NCBI RefSeq assembly: GCF_003312875.1
Contig: NZ_CP015163.1
Location: 4,774,001-4,838,000, forward strand
Length of the DNA: 64,000 bases
Origin: Amycolatopsis albispora
GTDB lineage: Bacteria; Actinomycetota; Actinomycetes; Mycobacteriales; Pseudonocardiaceae
Reading direction: 5' to 3'
Shown one piece after another: positions 50,334-56,572 of this stretch. Position 1 is the first letter of the stretch, and each line of letters opens with the position of its first letter. The notes beneath the pieces are model-generated. The model was not told where the DNA came from. It made no database searches and saw nothing but the letters and a program-made list of their open reading frames with translations. Both the position numbers and the translations under genes were made by a program.

Positions 50334-51091
50334 GTTCGGACCGGCCTGACGAAGAACGGGCGGAACTCGGCGAGCCCGGTGTCGTCGATGTCGACACCGA
50401 CGCTCCCGAGCCCCGCCCGGCCTGGTCGCGGGTGGTCATCCTGGGCGCCGCGACGCTCGCGGTGCTCCTGGTCGGCGCCACCATCGGCATGTTCCTCAGC
50501 CAGTCGCTCGGCCAGGACACCGATTCCGCGAACCCGGCGCCCGGCCCGGTGGAGGTCGGCTTCGCCCAGGACATGGCGGTGCACCACCTGCAGGCGGTCA
50601 CCATGGCCAACTGGGCGCGCGACCACTCCACCGACCCGCAGGTCCAGCAGCTCGCCTTCGACATCGCCAGCACCCAGCTCGAGCAGGTCGGCCGGATGAA
50701 GGGCTGGCTGATGCTGTGGAACAAGCCGGAGCAGGCCATCGGCGGGTACATGACCTGGATGACCGAGTCCGCCGGGCACGGCCACGGCGGGCACGCGGCG
50801 GCGACCGGGCAGGCCGCGCCCGGCGAGCCGCCGATGCCCGGCATGGCCACCAACGACGAGCTGGCCAAGCTGCGCTCGCTGTCCGGCAAGGAGCTGGACG
50901 TCTACTTCCTGCAGCTGATGCTCCGCCACCACCAGGGCGGCACGGAGATGGCGCAGTACACCCAGGACCACACCGGGATGTCCGCGGTGAAGTCGCTGAC
51001 GAACAGCATTCTCAAGTCGCAGGGCGCCGAGGTCCGCGTGATGACCGGCATGCTCGCGGACCGTGGCGCCACGCCGCTGCCGTTCAGCTGA
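50330..51091 (+). CDS. DUF305 ferritin-like membrane-anchored protein
   Basis: A 253-residue protein: acidic N-terminus, one membrane helix (VVILGAATLAVLLVGATIGMF) and an external DUF305 four-helix domain. The two paired His motifs FAQDMAVHHLQAVTMA and FLQLMLRHHQGGTEMA are typical; a His/Gly-rich loop (SAGHGHGGHAAATG) and several Met suggest metal, perhaps copper, binding. The ATG overlaps the DUF3105 stop (ATGA). Its end overlaps the convergent dehydratase gene by 8 nt. Confidence 0.86.
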   Translation: MSSDRPDEERAELGEPGVVDVDTDAPEPRPAWSRVVILGAATLAVLLVGATIGMFLSQSLGQDTDSANPAPGPVEVGFAQDMAVHHLQAVTMANWARDHSTDPQVQQLAFDIASTQLEQVGRMKGWLMLWNKPEQAIGGYMTWMTESAGHGHGGHAAATGQAAPGEPPMPGMATNDELAKLRSLSGKELDVYFLQLMLRHHQGGTEMAQYTQDHTGMSAVKSLTNSILKSQGAEVRVMTGMLADRGATPLPFS

Positions 51092-52778
51092 GCGGTTTCC
51101 GCAGGAAGTCGAAGTCGCAGCCGTCCGGTGACTGGAGCACGTGCCGGTGGTACAGCAGCTCGTAACCGCGTAACGGTGCTGGCGGCGGGGTGAACTCGGC
51201 CTTGCGGCGCTCGAGTTCTTCGGCCGGGACAAGCAGTTCGAGGCGACCGGCGTCGACGTCCAGCTCGATCAGGTCGCCGTCGCGGACCAGCGCGAGCGGG
51301 CCGCCGACCGCGGCCTCCGGCGCCACGTGCAGCGCGACCGCGCCGTCGGCGGTTCCGCTCATCCGGCCGTCCGAGATCCGCACCATGTCCTCGACGCCGG
51401 CGCGCGCGAGCTTCGCCGGGATGGGCACGTGGCCGACCTCCGGCATGCCGGGACCGCCGACCGGGCCGACCCCGCGCAGCACCAGCACCGAATCGGCGTC
51501 CACCGGCAGGTCGGGGTCGTCGATGCGGGCGTTCAGGTCGGTGACGCCGTCGAACACCAGCGCGCGGCCGGTGTGCCGCAGGAACCGGTGGTCCATCGCG
51601 GACCGCTTGATCACCGCGCCGTCGGGGGCGAGCGACCCGGTCAGCACGGCCAGCGCGCCACCGTCGGCCACCGGCTGGTCGAACGGGCGCAGCGCGGCAC
51701 CGGTCTTCGGCTGGACGTCGGCCACCTCCTCGGCCCAGGTCGCGCCACTCGCCGACGGCCGGTCGAGGTGCAGCACGGGTGCGAGTTCCTTGACCACGGC
51801 CGGGATGCCGCCCGCTTCGGCGAGGTCCTCGAGCAGGTGCGGCCCGGACGGCCGGACGTCGCCGAGCAGCGGGGTCGTCTCGCTCCAGCGGCGGAAGTGC
51901 GCGGCGTCCGCCGGTGCGCCGATCCGGCCGGCCATCGCCGCGAGGTGCACCATCGCATTGGTCGAACCACCGATGGCACACACCACGCGGAAGGCGTCCT
52001 CGATCGCCTCGGCGGTGACCACCTCGGCGGGCGGGCGGCCTTCCTCCGCCAGCGCGACCGCCCTGGTGCCGGTGCGCACGGCGGCGTCCTGGCGGGCCGA
52101 GCCGGTGGCGGGCAGCAGGGTCGAGCCGGGCAGCGCCAGCCCGAGCACCTCGGCGATGGTGGCCATGGTGGTCGCGGTGCCCATCACGTTGCAGGTGCCC
52201 ACCCCGCCCATCAGGCAGCCCTCCAGGCGGTTCCAGTCCTGATCGGACAGTTCACCGCGGCGGCGCCGGGCGGCGAGCGGCCAGAAGTCGTCGACGGTCA
52301 GCGCTTCGCCGTTCCACCGCGCCACCGGGCGGGGCCCGGCGGCGATCAGCAGGGCGGGCTTGCCCGCGCTGAGCGCGCCCATCACCTGCGCGGGAATGGT
52401 CTTGTCGCACCCGCCGAGCAGCACGACCGCGTCGACCGGACTGGAGGTGATCATCTGCTCGACGTCCATCGCCATCAGGTTGCGGAGGAACATCGAGGTG
52501 GGGCGCACGAACGCCTCGGAGATGGAGATGGTCGGGAACACCACCGGCAACCCGCCCGCCGCGAGCACGCCGCGCTTGACGGACTCGGCCACCGTGGAAA
52601 GCCCGGCGTTGCAGGGGTTCAGCTCACTGGCCGAGGAGCAGATGCCGATCACCGGGCGCTGCCGCACCTCCTCACCGGAGCGGCCGGTCGCCCGCAGGAA
52701 CGCCCGGTGGAGGAACCCGTCGATCGAGTCCTCATTGAACAGTGATCCATCCCCGCGGCGCGTTTCCTCTTGGGACAC
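51084..52778 (-). CDS. IlvD/Edd-family dehydratase
   Basis: A 564-residue Fe-S dehydratase of the dihydroxy-acid/sugar-acid group. The three cluster Cys residues are in ASELNPCNAGL, VVLLGGCDKTIPAQ and GGVGTCNVMGTATT; SDGRMSGTADGAVALHVAPEA is near the C-terminus. The long acidic insertion and the GTCN variant fit sugar-acid dehydratases (arabinonate, xylonate or gluconate) at least as well as IlvD, so the substrate is open. The GTG at 52778 follows GGGAG by 5 nt. Directly upstream lies one copy of the 32-bp repeat. Confidence 0.85.
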   Translation of the reverse strand: MSQEETRRGDGSLFNEDSIDGFLHRAFLRATGRSGEEVRQRPVIGICSSASELNPCNAGLSTVAESVKRGVLAAGGLPVVFPTISISEAFVRPTSMFLRNLMAMDVEQMITSSPVDAVVLLGGCDKTIPAQVMGALSAGKPALLIAAGPRPVARWNGEALTVDDFWPLAARRRRGELSDQDWNRLEGCLMGGVGTCNVMGTATTMATIAEVLGLALPGSTLLPATGSARQDAAVRTGTRAVALAEEGRPPAEVVTAEAIEDAFRVVCAIGGSTNAMVHLAAMAGRIGAPADAAHFRRWSETTPLLGDVRPSGPHLLEDLAEAGGIPAVVKELAPVLHLDRPSASGATWAEEVADVQPKTGAALRPFDQPVADGGALAVLTGSLAPDGAVIKRSAMDHRFLRHTGRALVFDGVTDLNARIDDPDLPVDADSVLVLRGVGPVGGPGMPEVGHVPIPAKLARAGVEDMVRISDGRMSGTADGAVALHVAPEAAVGGPLALVRDGDLIELDVDAGRLELLVPAEELERRKAEFTPPPAPLRGYELLYHRHVLQSPDGCDFDFLRKPLS

Positions 52779-52796: not shown

Positions 52797-52828
52797 TCCA
52801 CGAGCCGTGCGGCTCTGCCGTGACGGTA
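52797..52828. repeat. Direct repeat copy A bounding the regulator module
   Basis: TCCACGAGCCGTGCGGCTCT and following bases match 54943-54974 at 30 of 32 positions, the first 23 exactly. Read on the minus strand this copy encodes YRHGRAARLV and then EE-stop, like the sigma factor tail encoded by copy B (YLHGRAARLVDG-stop). It contains the palindrome GAGCCGTGCGGCTC. Confidence 0.9.
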
Positions 52829-52894
52829 GCTTGTCCGCTCGAGCGACCGCGCCGACCTCGCCCGTCGGCTGGGCGTGGGCAGGTGGTGAGCACG

Positions 52895-53173
52895 CTACAA
52901 GCAGCGCCTCCGAGTGGTGTCCGCGTTCCGGTCCTTCGCCGGAGCCGGGAGCAGATCGCGTAGTTCGAGCCACGTTTCCGCCATTTTCCGAGCCCGCACC
53001 GGGTCGTGGACGCCGATCTCCTGGCGTTCCGGTTTCTCGGCGCATTCCAGAAGCCAGGGGTATTTGCGCTGGGGCGTCGCGCGCAATCGCCACCATCGGC
53101 CGCGCCAGAGGATCTCGGAATGGTTGGCCCGCGTGATCCACGAAGGCTTGTTGTGCTGGGCTTTGCTGGTCAT
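52895..53173 (-). CDS. Small Trp/Arg-rich protein of unknown function
   Basis: A 92-residue basic protein with many Trp residues in its first half (PSWITRANHSEILWRGRWWRLRATPQRKYPWLLE) and a helical second half (DPVRARKMAETWLELRDLL). Third codon positions are mostly G or C but less strictly than in housekeeping genes here, which supports coding on this strand. It faces away from the XRE regulator and lies within the direct-repeat-bounded module. Not recognised. Confidence 0.5.
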   Translation of the reverse strand: MTSKAQHNKPSWITRANHSEILWRGRWWRLRATPQRKYPWLLECAEKPERQEIGVHDPVRARKMAETWLELRDLLPAPAKDRNADTTRRRCL

Positions 53174-53235
53174 AGCGGAACCGTCGCCAGTACACCAGCG
53201 CTACCAGATACCACCGTGCATGTCACGCACGCGGT

Positions 53236-53260
53236 TTGCGAGATGCGCAACAAGTCTTGT
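53236..53260. promoter_or_regulatory. Two adjoining inverted repeats, possible operator
   Basis: TTGCG-AGATG-CGCAA (53236-53250) is joined to ACAAGTCTTGT (53250-53260), in the 114-bp space between the divergent small gene and the XRE regulator. Position and symmetry fit autoregulation by the XRE protein. Confidence 0.45.
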
Positions 53261-53287
53261 ACCGAGCGGGGTGACTGTGGGTGTCCG

Positions 53288-54532
53288 GTGAGGCACACTC
53301 TGGACGTGCAGGTGCCCGATCTCGGTCCGGTGATCCGCGCCGCCAGAGTCGCGGCCGGGTTGACCCTGCGCTCCGCCGGGGCGCGGATCGGCTACTCGGC
53401 GTCGACGCTGTCCCGGGTGGAGACCGGTCACCAGCAGCCCGACCTGGCGATGCTGTGGCGGCTGGTGGAGTTGTACGGGCTTTCGCCGAGCCGGGTCGGG
53501 CTCAGTACCGTGACCGGCACGGACAACGGCTCGGCGGACGGTGACGGCATGCGACGCAGGCTCCTGCTGGCTGGCGTGCTGGGTTCCGCCGCGACCGCGC
53601 TCCTGCACCCGGAGCCCACCGGCAAGCCCGTCAGCGTCGCCGGGCTCCGCGCCCGGATCCACACCGCGCAGGGTGACTACCTGGCGTGCCGCTACGCCCA
53701 GGTCACCACGGCCCTGCCCGGCCTGTTGCAGGACGCGCAGGTACTCGTGCACGAAGCAAAGGCCGACACCAAGAGCGCGGCGTGGACGCTGCTCGCGTAT
53801 GCCTATCGGCACACCGCGTGGCTGGCCCTCCGGCTGGGCGACGAGGGACTGGCGTCAGGCATGGCGCACCAGCTGCTGACCGCCGCCCGCGCCGCCGATG
53901 ATCCGCTGGTGGCGGCGGATGCGGCCCAGCTCGGCGCCGTGCTGCTGCGCCGTTCGGGAGAGCCGGGAGGGGCTGCCGAGCTGGTCACCGGTGTCGCGGA
54001 CCGCCTGCACGCCGGGCTCGCCGAGCAGGCCGATCGAGCCCACGCCGAGCACGCCGCCGCGTTCGGCGGCCTGCTGGCGGCGGCCGCCTACACCGCGGCC
54101 ACCGATTCCGACCGAGCCCGCGCGGTCACCCTCTACGCCGAAGCCACCAGCGCCACTCAGGGCATCCAGGTGCCGGCGGGCTCGCTCACCCAGACAGCCG
54201 CCGAAGCCCGGTTCCTCCCGCTGTACGGAGTGAGCATCGCGCGCGCACTCGGCGACTACGGCACCGCGATCGAACGGGCACGCGCCATCCGCCCGGAAAC
54301 CATCACCATTCCCGAACGGCGTGCACGCTATTGGCAAGAGGTCGCGCAGGCCTGGCACGGCTGGGGAAAACCAGAAGCCGCCTTCCGCGCGGTGCGGCAA
54401 GTCGAACGCTGCGCCCCTCAGGAACTGAACCGCCCGTGGGCGCGCCAACTCACCCGCGAACTGCTCGGGGCACCTCGCGCGAATCCCTTACCCGGCTTGC
54501 GGGAATTCGCCGCGCGCGTCGGCGTCACCTGA
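53288..54532 (+). CDS. XRE-family regulator with TPR-like C-terminal region
   Basis: A 414-residue regulator. The N-terminal helix-turn-helix is [44 protein letters not shown] (residues about 15-60), followed by a linker with LLLAGVLGSAATAL and about 300 residues of Ala/Leu/Arg helices that look like TPR repeats. This architecture is common in Streptomyces-type regulators paired with a small protein. The start is uncertain among GTGs at 53288, 53306 and 53312. It is 35 bp before the next small gene and probably in one transcript with it. Confidence 0.82.
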   Translation: MRHTLDVQVPDLGPVIRAARVAAGLTLRSAGARIGYSASTLSRVETGHQQPDLAMLWRLVELYGLSPSRVGLSTVTGTDNGSADGDGMRRRLLLAGVLGSAATALLHPEPTGKPVSVAGLRARIHTAQGDYLACRYAQVTTALPGLLQDAQVLVHEAKADTKSAAWTLLAYAYRHTAWLALRLGDEGLASGMAHQLLTAARAADDPLVAADAAQLGAVLLRRSGEPGGAAELVTGVADRLHAGLAEQADRAHAEHAAAFGGLLAAAAYTAATDSDRARAVTLYAEATSATQGIQVPAGSLTQTAAEARFLPLYGVSIARALGDYGTAIERARAIRPETITIPERRARYWQEVAQAWHGWGKPEAAFRAVRQVERCAPQELNRPWARQLTRELLGAPRANPLPGLREFAARVGVT

Positions 54533-54567
54533 CAAACCGATCCGAACCCAAAGAAAGGACGCCATTG

Positions 54568-54939
54568 GTGGCCGAAATCGAAGCAGGCAAAGTCTTCCGC
54601 GAAGCATGGATCGCCGGTGTGAAGCGCCATTATCCCGGTGAACCCAAGGCCAGCTACATCACGCCTTGGGAGGACACTCCGGACTGGGAACGCCAGGCGG
54701 CCGCGGCCGTCTATCACCAAATCCGTGCGTTCGTCGAGGCCACCGGTGGTGCGACCGGAAAACTCAGCCGCGAGCAACGCGGACGCTTCGTCGCGCTCTG
54801 CTGGATCGGCCAGATACACCGGCACTTCGCCGATCCGAAGCCGGGGTACGTAGCCGACTGGGAAGCGATGCCCGAATGGCAACGGCAGACCGATGCCGAC
54901 ATCTTCGATCACGTCGAAAACAGCAACCCGGTGGCTTAA
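54568..54939 (+). CDS. Small protein with an internal duplication, partner of the XRE regulator
   Basis: A 123-residue protein made of two similar halves of about 50 residues. Half 1 has W-x-x-x-V-KRHYPGEPKASYITPWEDTPDWERQ; half 2 has W-x-x-x-I-HRHFADPKPGYVADWEAMPEWQRQ; both end with a helix (AAVYHQIRAFVE and ADIFDHVENSN). I recall similar unnamed proteins next to XRE regulators in actinobacteria, but know no function. AAAGGA precedes a TTG at 54565 and the GTG at 54568; the GTG is used. Its stop overlaps the stop of the convergent sigma factor gene. Confidence 0.78.
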   Translation: MAEIEAGKVFREAWIAGVKRHYPGEPKASYITPWEDTPDWERQAAAAVYHQIRAFVEATGGATGKLSREQRGRFVALCWIGQIHRHFADPKPGYVADWEAMPEWQRQTDADIFDHVENSNPVA

Positions 54940-56162
54940 CCATCCACGAGCCGTGCGGCTCTGCCATGAAGGTAACGCTGTTGCGGCAGGCTCGTCGCGC
55001 GGGCTGCCGCGGCCGCATAGGACTCGCGGGCGCCGGCCCGGTCTCCTGCCAGTTCCAGTAGGTGGGCCCGCACGGCAGGCACCCGGTGGTCACCCGGCAA
55101 CCGACCGTCCACTTCGGTCAGCAATTCCAGTCCGGCACGCGGGCCCCGTGCCATGGCAACCGCGACGCAGTGGTTCAACGCCACCACCGGGTTGTCGGAC
55201 AACCGCATCAGAGCCTCGTACAGCGCGACGATCTGCGGCCAGTCGGTCTCCTCCGCGCTCGGCGCTTCGTCGTGCACGGCGGCGATCGCCGCCTGGAGCT
55301 GGTATTCGCCGACCGGGCCGCGGGGCAGCGCGGCGGTGATCAGCTCGACGCCCTCGGTGATGGCGCGCTGGTCCCACCGGCTCCGGTCCTGTTCGGACAT
55401 CGGCACCAGCGCGCCGTCGGGGCCGGTGCGCGCGGCGCGCCGGGCGTCGGTGAGCAGCATCAGCGCGAGCAGCCCGGCCACCTCGCTGTCCTCGGGCAGC
55501 AGCTCCCGCACCATCCGCGTCAGCCGGATCGCCTCGGCGGTCAGCTCGGTCCGCTGCAGGTCCGGGCCCGCGGTGCTGGCGTACCCCTCGTTGAAGATCA
55601 GGTACAGCACGTGCAGCACGGCCGCCAGCCGCGCGGGGTCCGCGGGCAAGCCGAACGGCACACCGCTGTCCTTGATCCGCTGCTTGGCGCGGCTGATGCG
55701 CCGGGTCATCGTCGCTTCCGGCACCAGGAAGGCCCTGGCGATCTCGGCCGTGGTCAGCCCGCCGACCGCGCGCAGGGTGAGCGCGATCTGCGACGCCGGG
55801 GACAGCGACGGGTGGCAGCACAGGAACAGCAGCACCAGCGTGTCGTCCGCGGGCTTCGCGGCCCGGTCCGCGGCGGGTGCCAGCCATTCCTCGGGCAGCA
55901 CCTGCCGTGCCACGGTGTCCTCGCGACGGCGGCGGGCGTACTCGCTGCGCAGCAGATCGGTCAGCCGCCGGGAGGCGACGGTGATCAGCCAGCCGCGCGG
56001 GTTGTCCGGTACGCCGCCCTCCGGCCACTGCGTGGCGGCGGCCAGCAGCGCCTCCTGCACCGCGTCCTCCGCGGTGTCGAAGTGCCCGAACCGCCGGACC
56101 ACCGCACCGAGGACCTGCGGCGCGAGAGTCCGCAGCAGGCCGTCCACCTCGGTACCGGGCAT
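54936..56162 (-). CDS. ECF sigma factor with long C-terminal domain (DUF6596, ECF42-like)
   Basis: A 408-residue ECF sigma factor. Region 2 includes GHFDTAEDAVQEALLAAATQWPEGGVPDNPRGWLITVASRRLTDLLR, and region 4 includes ALTLRAVGGLTTAEIARAFLVPEATMTRRISRAKQRI. Beyond it lies a helical domain of about 220 residues (VLYLIFNEGYASTAG ... YQLQAAIAAVHDEAPS ... VALNHCVAVAMARGPRAGLE) ending in the HGRAARL motif. This form (ECF42) works with YCII/DGPF proteins rather than an anti-sigma factor, and one is encoded just upstream. The ATG at 56162 is 2 nt after that gene. Confidence 0.92.
   Translation of the reverse strand: MPGTEVDGLLRTLAPQVLGAVVRRFGHFDTAEDAVQEALLAAATQWPEGGVPDNPRGWLITVASRRLTDLLRSEYARRRREDTVARQVLPEEWLAPAADRAAKPADDTLVLLFLCCHPSLSPASQIALTLRAVGGLTTAEIARAFLVPEATMTRRISRAKQRIKDSGVPFGLPADPARLAAVLHVLYLIFNEGYASTAGPDLQRTELTAEAIRLTRMVRELLPEDSEVAGLLALMLLTDARRAARTGPDGALVPMSEQDRSRWDQRAITEGVELITAALPRGPVGEYQLQAAIAAVHDEAPSAEETDWPQIVALYEALMRLSDNPVVALNHCVAVAMARGPRAGLELLTEVDGRLPGDHRVPAVRAHLLELAGDRAGARESYAAAAARATSLPQQRYLHGRAARLVDG
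54943..54974. repeat. Direct repeat copy B, the 3' end of the sigma factor gene
   Basis: Matches 52797-52828 at 30 of 32 positions. On the minus strand it encodes the last residues of the ECF sigma factor (RYLHGRAARLV). It would be the gene-side copy if the pair is an attachment-site duplication. Confidence 0.9.
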
Positions 56163-56164
56163 CC

Positions 56165-56572
56165 TCAGAAACCGATGTCGTCCACGGACTCCATCAGCGG
56201 CCGGACGTCCGCGTAGGCGCCCTCGGCGAGCGCGGCCGGCGCCGGGCACTCCGACAGCCGCGCGGCGATCTCGGTGGCCCGGTCGAGGCTCTCGCATTCG
56301 ACGATCCAGTAGCCGGCCAGCACTTCCTGCGTTTCGGCGTACGGGCCGTCCGTCCACACGGGAACGCCGTCCTGGCGGCCGTGGACGCGCCGGGTGTGCA
56401 CGGGCGCGTTCAGCCCGCGCGTCTCCACCAGCTCACCCGACGCCTCCAGCTCTGCGTTGAACTTCGTCATGAACTCGTGCATCCCGGCGAAGTCCTCCGG
56501 CCGGTAACCACCCTTGCCCGCCATGGCGTCGTAGTCCTGCTGCGAGCCGTAGCTGAGGATCATGTACTTCAT
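56165..56572 (-). CDS. YCII-related (DGPF) protein
   Basis: A 135-residue protein with the YCII fold: MKYMILSYGSQQDYDAM at the N-terminus and the signature VPVWTDGPYAETQEVLAGYWIVEC. YCII proteins have a possible His/Asp active site of unknown reaction. It is the partner of ECF42 sigma factors, transcribed together with the one downstream. The ATG at 56572 follows GAGGAG by 6 nt. Confidence 0.9.
   Translation of the reverse strand: MKYMILSYGSQQDYDAMAGKGGYRPEDFAGMHEFMTKFNAELEASGELVETRGLNAPVHTRRVHGRQDGVPVWTDGPYAETQEVLAGYWIVECESLDRATEIAARLSECPAPAALAEGAYADVRPLMESVDDIGF

What the first reader, a model, noticed from the sequence alone, without database searches (positions are those of the whole stretch)
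52797..54974. A 2.1-kb regulator module bounded by a 32-bp direct repeat that matches the end of a sigma factor gene
Positions 52797-52828 and 54943-54974 agree at 30 of 32 bases (23 exact in a row). The right copy is the 3' end of the ECF42-like sigma gene (RYLHGRAARLVDG-stop); the left copy encodes a displaced tail (YRHGRAARLVEE-stop) followed at once by the ribosome-binding site of the dehydratase. Between them lie a Trp-rich small gene, an XRE regulator and a duplicated-domain small protein. This is the pattern left when an element inserts at a gene's 3' end and restores it, yet there is no integrase. It suggests a minimal mobile or recombined regulatory cassette, or a satellite using another element's integrase. 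Homologous recombination between two sigma genes is the alternative.
Basis: partly seen in the sequence, partly recalled or inferred. Interest (0 to 1): 0.8.

Follow-up and report, generated by a model that had tools for sequence, protein, structure and literature searches.

The report
Inserted regulator cassette behind sigma gene
A foreign three-gene regulatory cassette was inserted cleanly between a sigma-factor gene and its downstream neighbour, and its small partner protein may share the fold of the nucleotide-binding domain of ryanodine receptors.

Summary
The 32-bp direct repeat is as described. Two relatives (G053, G057) have the empty site: one repeat copy, sigma gene directly followed by the dehydratase. 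Joined window flanks align with both without a gap (91%), so 2,146 bp were added and no host base was lost. Identity shows no unusual drop along the sigma gene up to the junction, which argues against import of a second sigma gene's end. No recombinase profile match lies within 500 kb, and no comparable pair of sites was found in 390 genomes. The likeliest mechanism is site-specific integration by a recombinase now lost; recombination of a circle over 23-32 bp of chance homology is a real rival. The small 123-aa gene belongs to a large unnamed actinobacterial family (1,138 homologues), usually behind an XRE-type regulator that is divergent from variable genes, three of its closest relatives beside FxLD lanthipeptide clusters. 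The layout resembles whiJ-bldB (XRE-DUF397) loci. The small protein is a tandem repeat whose best structural matches are RyR domains, with one invariant Trp per repeat: a nucleotide-sensing partner is suggested, not shown. The insertion splits the sigma-dehydratase pair and may put the dehydratase under the cassette's promoter.

The parts
52797..52828 (-). left repeat copy; native 3' end of the sigma gene (...RAARLVEE-stop), displaced by the insertion; outer side is host, inner side is element
   Evidence: outer side matches the empty sites of G053/G057, the two mismatches lie on the inner side
54943..54974 (-). right repeat copy; current 3' end of the sigma gene
   Evidence: sigma side matches the empty sites, element side does not
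52829..54942 (.). inserted segment, 2,114 bp between the repeats (2,146 bp added, counting one repeat copy)
   Evidence: joined flanks align gap-free with G053 and G057, and the insert has no blastn match (E 1e-3) in those two fetched loci
52895..53173 (-). small Trp-rich gene (92 aa), divergent from the XRE gene; putative target gene of the module
   Evidence: weak relatives in 13 other genomes of 390; a word-based protein search finds only itself. Relatives lie near DUF5753 regulators in 3 of 8 loci typed, near DUF6879 in 2 of 8
53174..53305 (.). 132-bp divergent promoter region with the perfect palindrome ACAAGTCTTGT at 53250-53260 (candidate operator, inference)
   Evidence: that motif is in 0 of 54 other XRE upstream regions, so it is not a family-wide operator
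53306..54532 (+). XRE-type regulator, HTH plus long C-terminal region (408 aa)
   Evidence: HTH_31 E 7.8e-14; phrog_5823 transcriptional regulator, residues 5-408, E 2.3e-52
54568..54939 (+). 123-aa tandem-repeat small protein, RyR-like by predicted structure; its stop overlaps the sigma stop in TTAA 54936-54939
54936..56162 (-). ECF sigma factor with DUF6596 region, target gene of the insertion
   Evidence: Pfam; a match at E <= 1e-100 in 80 of 80 genomes of the genus (in many the best match may be a paralogue)
51084..52778 (-). dihydroxy-acid/6-phosphogluconate dehydratase-family gene, directly behind the sigma gene in the empty sites
   Evidence: Pfam ILVD_EDD_N, ILV_EDD_C; adjacent to sigma in G053, G057
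56165..56572 (-). YCII-family gene upstream of sigma (context)
   Evidence: Pfam

Best explanation
A 2.1-kb foreign regulatory module (XRE regulator, tandem RyR-like partner protein, divergent small gene) entered the 3' end of an ECF sigma gene in this lineage by one clean recombination between a circular form and the host over a shared 23-32-bp site. Shown: clean insertion, empty sites, restored frame, no lost host base. Inferred: a tyrosine-type recombinase did it and its gene is now absent, so the module is an att-flanked remnant (CIME-like). Inferred for function: XRE controls the divergent promoter at 53174-53305, and the partner protein, through a two-repeat cleft with one invariant Trp per repeat, modulates XRE in response to a small ligand, probably an adenine nucleotide. 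Also inferred: the dehydratase, cut off from its sigma partner, may now be read from the module's divergent promoter.
Confidence: 0.5

Rival explanations
1. A circular or circularised donor fragment entered by RecA-dependent or end-joining recombination over chance homology of 23-32 bp; no site-specific recombinase was involved.
For: No recombinase match within 500 kb; the site pair was seen in no other genome of 390; repeats are not a general feature of the pairs (8 of 93 loci exceed the shuffle maximum of 18, most of them by paralogous genes or a palindromic repeat).
Against: Not one host base was lost or added besides the repeat; 23 bp is short for RecA (general knowledge); the junction restores the frame with a stop two codons on.
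Confidence: 0.3
2. Homologous recombination between two sigma genes brought the module in together with a foreign sigma 3' end.
For: The element side of the site still resembles sigma coding sequence (YRHGRAARLV against YLHGRAARLV).
Against: Along the sigma gene identity to G053/G057 is 84-95% per 150 bp, and 84.0 and 86.7% in the last 150 bp, where the two relatives themselves differ to 85.3%. Seven of 31 other near-matches to the core were read and none is a sigma gene end.
Confidence: 0.08
3. A transposition with an unusually long target-site duplication of 23-32 bp.
For: Clean insertion with a direct repeat and no target loss.
Against: No transposase gene recognised and no terminal inverted repeat among the 16 inverted pairs listed; both mismatches sit at the element-side edge, as for att sites.
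Confidence: 0.05
4. The module is ancestral and was precisely excised in the relatives.
For: Precise excision would leave the same empty site.
Against: The more distant G026 and the other examined relatives lack it too: 0 of 20 loci.
Confidence: 0.05

Closest known systems
XRE-DUF397 pairs (whiJ-bldB, Scr1-Scr2)
   Same: XRE regulator next to a small partner gene, divergent target gene, copies at unrelated places; regulators of antibiotic production and development (PMC10364602 abstract and passages; PMC10294661 abstract and passages)
   Different: partner is a 123-aa tandem helical repeat with no DUF397 match; the XRE shows no DUF5753 match
CIME (cis-mobilizable element: decayed ICE/IME that kept attL and attR)
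   Same: flanked by a direct repeat at a gene 3' end, no integration or transfer genes (definition from one passage of PMC5704250)
   Different: only 2.1 kb, no related ICE/IME or recombinase known for this site, mobility untested
RyR-domain proteins (PF02026): ryanodine receptor Repeat12, phage RyDEP
   Same: predicted tandem helical-repeat fold; one invariant Trp per repeat (W14, W79) and an invariant Asp (D109) that my hand alignment places on RyR ligand residues (residues from passages of PMC12627627 and PMC13232231)
   Different: no Pfam match; the position of the RyDEP catalytic His reads Arg11 in the first repeat by that hand alignment, so a glycosidase is not expected

Membership tests
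Site-specifically integrated element (CIME-like) | direct repeat (attL/attR) at both ends with a single copy in empty relatives | tested here: met
Site-specifically integrated element (CIME-like) | related autonomous element or recombinase that uses the same site | tested here: inconclusive
   none found: site pair in 1 of 390 genomes, no recombinase match within 500 kb; one genome per species only
Site-specifically integrated element (CIME-like) | excision or mobilisation | not testable with these tools
   needs PCR for the circular form
XRE-DUF397 regulator pair | XRE HTH regulator with adjacent small gene | tested here: met
XRE-DUF397 regulator pair | partner with DUF397 domain | tested here: not met
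   no DUF397 match for the small protein or 15 relatives
RyR domain (PF02026) | match to the family HMM | tested here: not met
   no match at E 0.1 for the window protein nor at E 10 for 16 members
RyR domain (PF02026) | RyR fold, tandem as in Repeat12 | tested here: inconclusive
RyR domain (PF02026) | adenine-nucleotide binding | not testable with these tools
   needs ITC or a co-crystal

The most novel reading that the evidence does not exclude
A large, undescribed class of actinobacterial regulator pairs exists in which an XRE regulator is controlled by a tandem RyR-like nucleotide sensor. Here such a pair with its target promoter forms a minimal plug-in cassette that inserts at a gene end and takes over the gene behind it.
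Probability: 0.25. Interest if true: 0.75.

Novelty: new variant of a known kind. Interest (0 to 1): 0.5.

Why it matters
It gives a clean case of a regulatory cassette inserted between two adjacent co-directional genes, with empty sites for comparison. It also points to a frequent but unnamed regulator pair near RiPP and other specialised-metabolite genes, whose partner protein offers a testable ligand hypothesis. Nucleotide binding by a RyR-type fold has lately been reported in phage anti-Thoeris proteins (preprint PMC13232231, abstract and passages), so a use in transcription control would be a new role.

Tried and rejected
Flanking repeats as a general property of the pairs: 93 loci tested, 8 exceed the shuffle maximum of 18. 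L088, L103 and L178 repeat an HTH gene that lies on both sides and L138 a paralogous small gene (65 of 82 residues identical); L170 is a palindromic repeat 3 bp after the stop; L132 (a long repeat), L164 and L140 (20 bp, 7 bp after the stop) were not followed up. The 93 loci hold some genomes twice, as L087-L106 and L114-L193 overlap.

Recombinase beside the pair: a strict motif scan gave 0 of 80 named loci, but it would miss the variant seen in L106 (1 of 20 first loci). A looser scan gave 5 of 80, none of which reads like an integrase to me, and 1 of 8 later loci, L253, about 8 kb off. These are pattern scans and do not cover serine integrases.

Donor search: the closest XRE relatives are 42-51% identical. 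No sequence within 8 mismatches of the 32-bp repeat was found in 107 loci holding the pair. Plasmid records: 5 hold the small gene; phage records: none. Viral contigs: 6, of which only open reading frames were listed. With the first core pattern the relative G057 shows a second weak match (3 mismatches) 3 Mb away on the other strand; with the second pattern 34 of 390 genomes have a match, and reversed-pattern controls also give scattered matches, so most are chance.

Operator search: the window's palindrome is in 0 of 54 regions, and no other palindrome in more than 6 of 54. Promoter scan: none; one terminator-like site inside the small gene on the minus strand, none between the Trp-rich gene and the dehydratase. 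PHROGs and PADLOC gave nothing for the two small proteins. Sequence search of solved structures with the small-protein profile: none at E 1. Print searches; the six rows listed of 165 do not hold the term RyR domain. PMC5512222, PMC7824862 and PMC7016017 were searched for RyR and gave nothing used.

Full report
Observation. The repeat is as reported, far above shuffled flanks (score 26 against at most 15 in 15 shuffles), and its core occurs only as this pair in the complete 9.12-Mb genome.

Empty site. The sigma protein was sought in 80 genomes of the genus. Loci were returned for 29 other genomes, and 20 of these were fetched at 14-15 kb. The module genes were seen in 0 of the 20 (tblastn E 1e-5, matches over 30% identity printed). 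In G053 and G057, 90-91% identical in the sigma protein, the sigma gene is followed directly by the dehydratase, its stop 11 nt before the GTG start. G026 lacks both the module and the dehydratase there. Joining the window's flanks gives gap-free alignments with both empty sites (1,556 bp at 91.1%, 1,557 bp at 91.3%). Thus 2,146 bp were added and nothing was lost. The sigma side of the right copy and the dehydratase side of the left copy match the empty sites, and the two mismatches lie at the element edge of the left copy, so the exchange fell in the 23-bp core. The old C-terminus ...RAARLVEE became ...RAARLVDG.

Mechanism of insertion. Identity to the relatives along the sigma gene is 84-95% per 150 bp; the lowest value lies in the last 150 bp (84.0 and 86.7%), but there the two relatives themselves differ to the same degree (85.3%). 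So the sigma 3' end was not visibly replaced. The genome has 12 PF00589 and 7 PF00239 matches, the nearest more than 500 kb away. A core pattern with up to 3 mismatches matches in 34 of 390 family genomes but as a pair only in this one; seven of the 31 unrelated matches were read and none is a sigma gene end. The pattern is that of att sites left by a tyrosine-type recombinase, with inverted arms GAGC/GCTC in the core, but no recombinase is found. I give about 0.5 to the combined reading with the recombinase lost and 0.3 to recombination of a circle over chance homology.

The module. The small gene has 1,138 homologues in the protein database, occurs in 100 of 390 family genomes, and is well conserved (63-73% identity to the window protein in 15 sampled members), although no Pfam or NCBIfam family covers it. 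A common XRE/TPR-like regulator is the next gene upstream on the same strand in 18 of 20 first loci; an HMM built from these XREs and the window's recognises one directly upstream in 47 of 80 named loci (66 of 100 with the first 20, which overlap). In 40 of 43 named loci with such an XRE and readable flanks, the next gene upstream is divergent. Of 94 divergent-side proteins, up to three per locus, 7 match radical SAM, 3 PCMT, and single ones lanthipeptide dehydratase and LanC families. The window's XRE itself lies outside the common cluster. Of the eight fetched loci of its closest relatives in the family (42-49% identical), seven hold the small gene next to XRE. Three of them have a lanthipeptide dehydratase (Pfam) and an FxLD-family precursor (TIGR04363) on the divergent side. 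In the window the divergent gene is the Trp-rich one. It has weak relatives in 13 other genomes of 390, near DUF5753 XRE regulators in L200, L203 and L210 and DUF6879 genes in L200 and L203 (20 proteins from 8 of 12 loci were typed).

Consequence at the locus. The insertion parts the dehydratase from the sigma gene. It now lies about 117 bp behind the Trp-rich gene on the same strand, with no terminator-like site predicted between them, so read-through from the module promoter is possible. The small gene and the sigma gene overlap by four bases (TTAA) at their stops.

Verdict. A genuine, clean insertion of a regulatory cassette; recombinase unknown; regulator pair widespread and, in the searches, not met in print with a RyR-like partner.

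Noticed in passing
own genome G000:C1 3253006-3255686, 6381988-6384668, 6478086-6480766 (L260-L262): Three roughly 6-kb copies, 97-98% identical, of an element with two PF00589 matches side by side and a small gene that looks coiled-coil, reminiscent of Tn554-type TnpABC (recalled label).
   Followed up: partly
L037, L038, L045, L047, L048 (relatives' sigma loci): Six palindromes of about 42 bp, CGTGAGTGG...CCACTCACG, in relatives; in G044 (L038) one overlaps the end of the orthologous sigma gene. Half-sites: 21 in 303 kb, which one of 30 shuffled 9-mers exceeds (26), so only the full palindromes stand out; none in the window.
   Followed up: partly
L035 (G026): The dehydratase is absent between the sigma gene and the next gene, so gene content behind this sigma gene has varied more than once.
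   Followed up: no
L138 (Actinomadura terrae): The pair lies between two directly repeated small genes, 65 of 82 residues identical.
   Followed up: partly
L252, L254, L258: The pair sits divergent to class I lanthipeptide clusters with FxLD-family precursors.
   Followed up: partly
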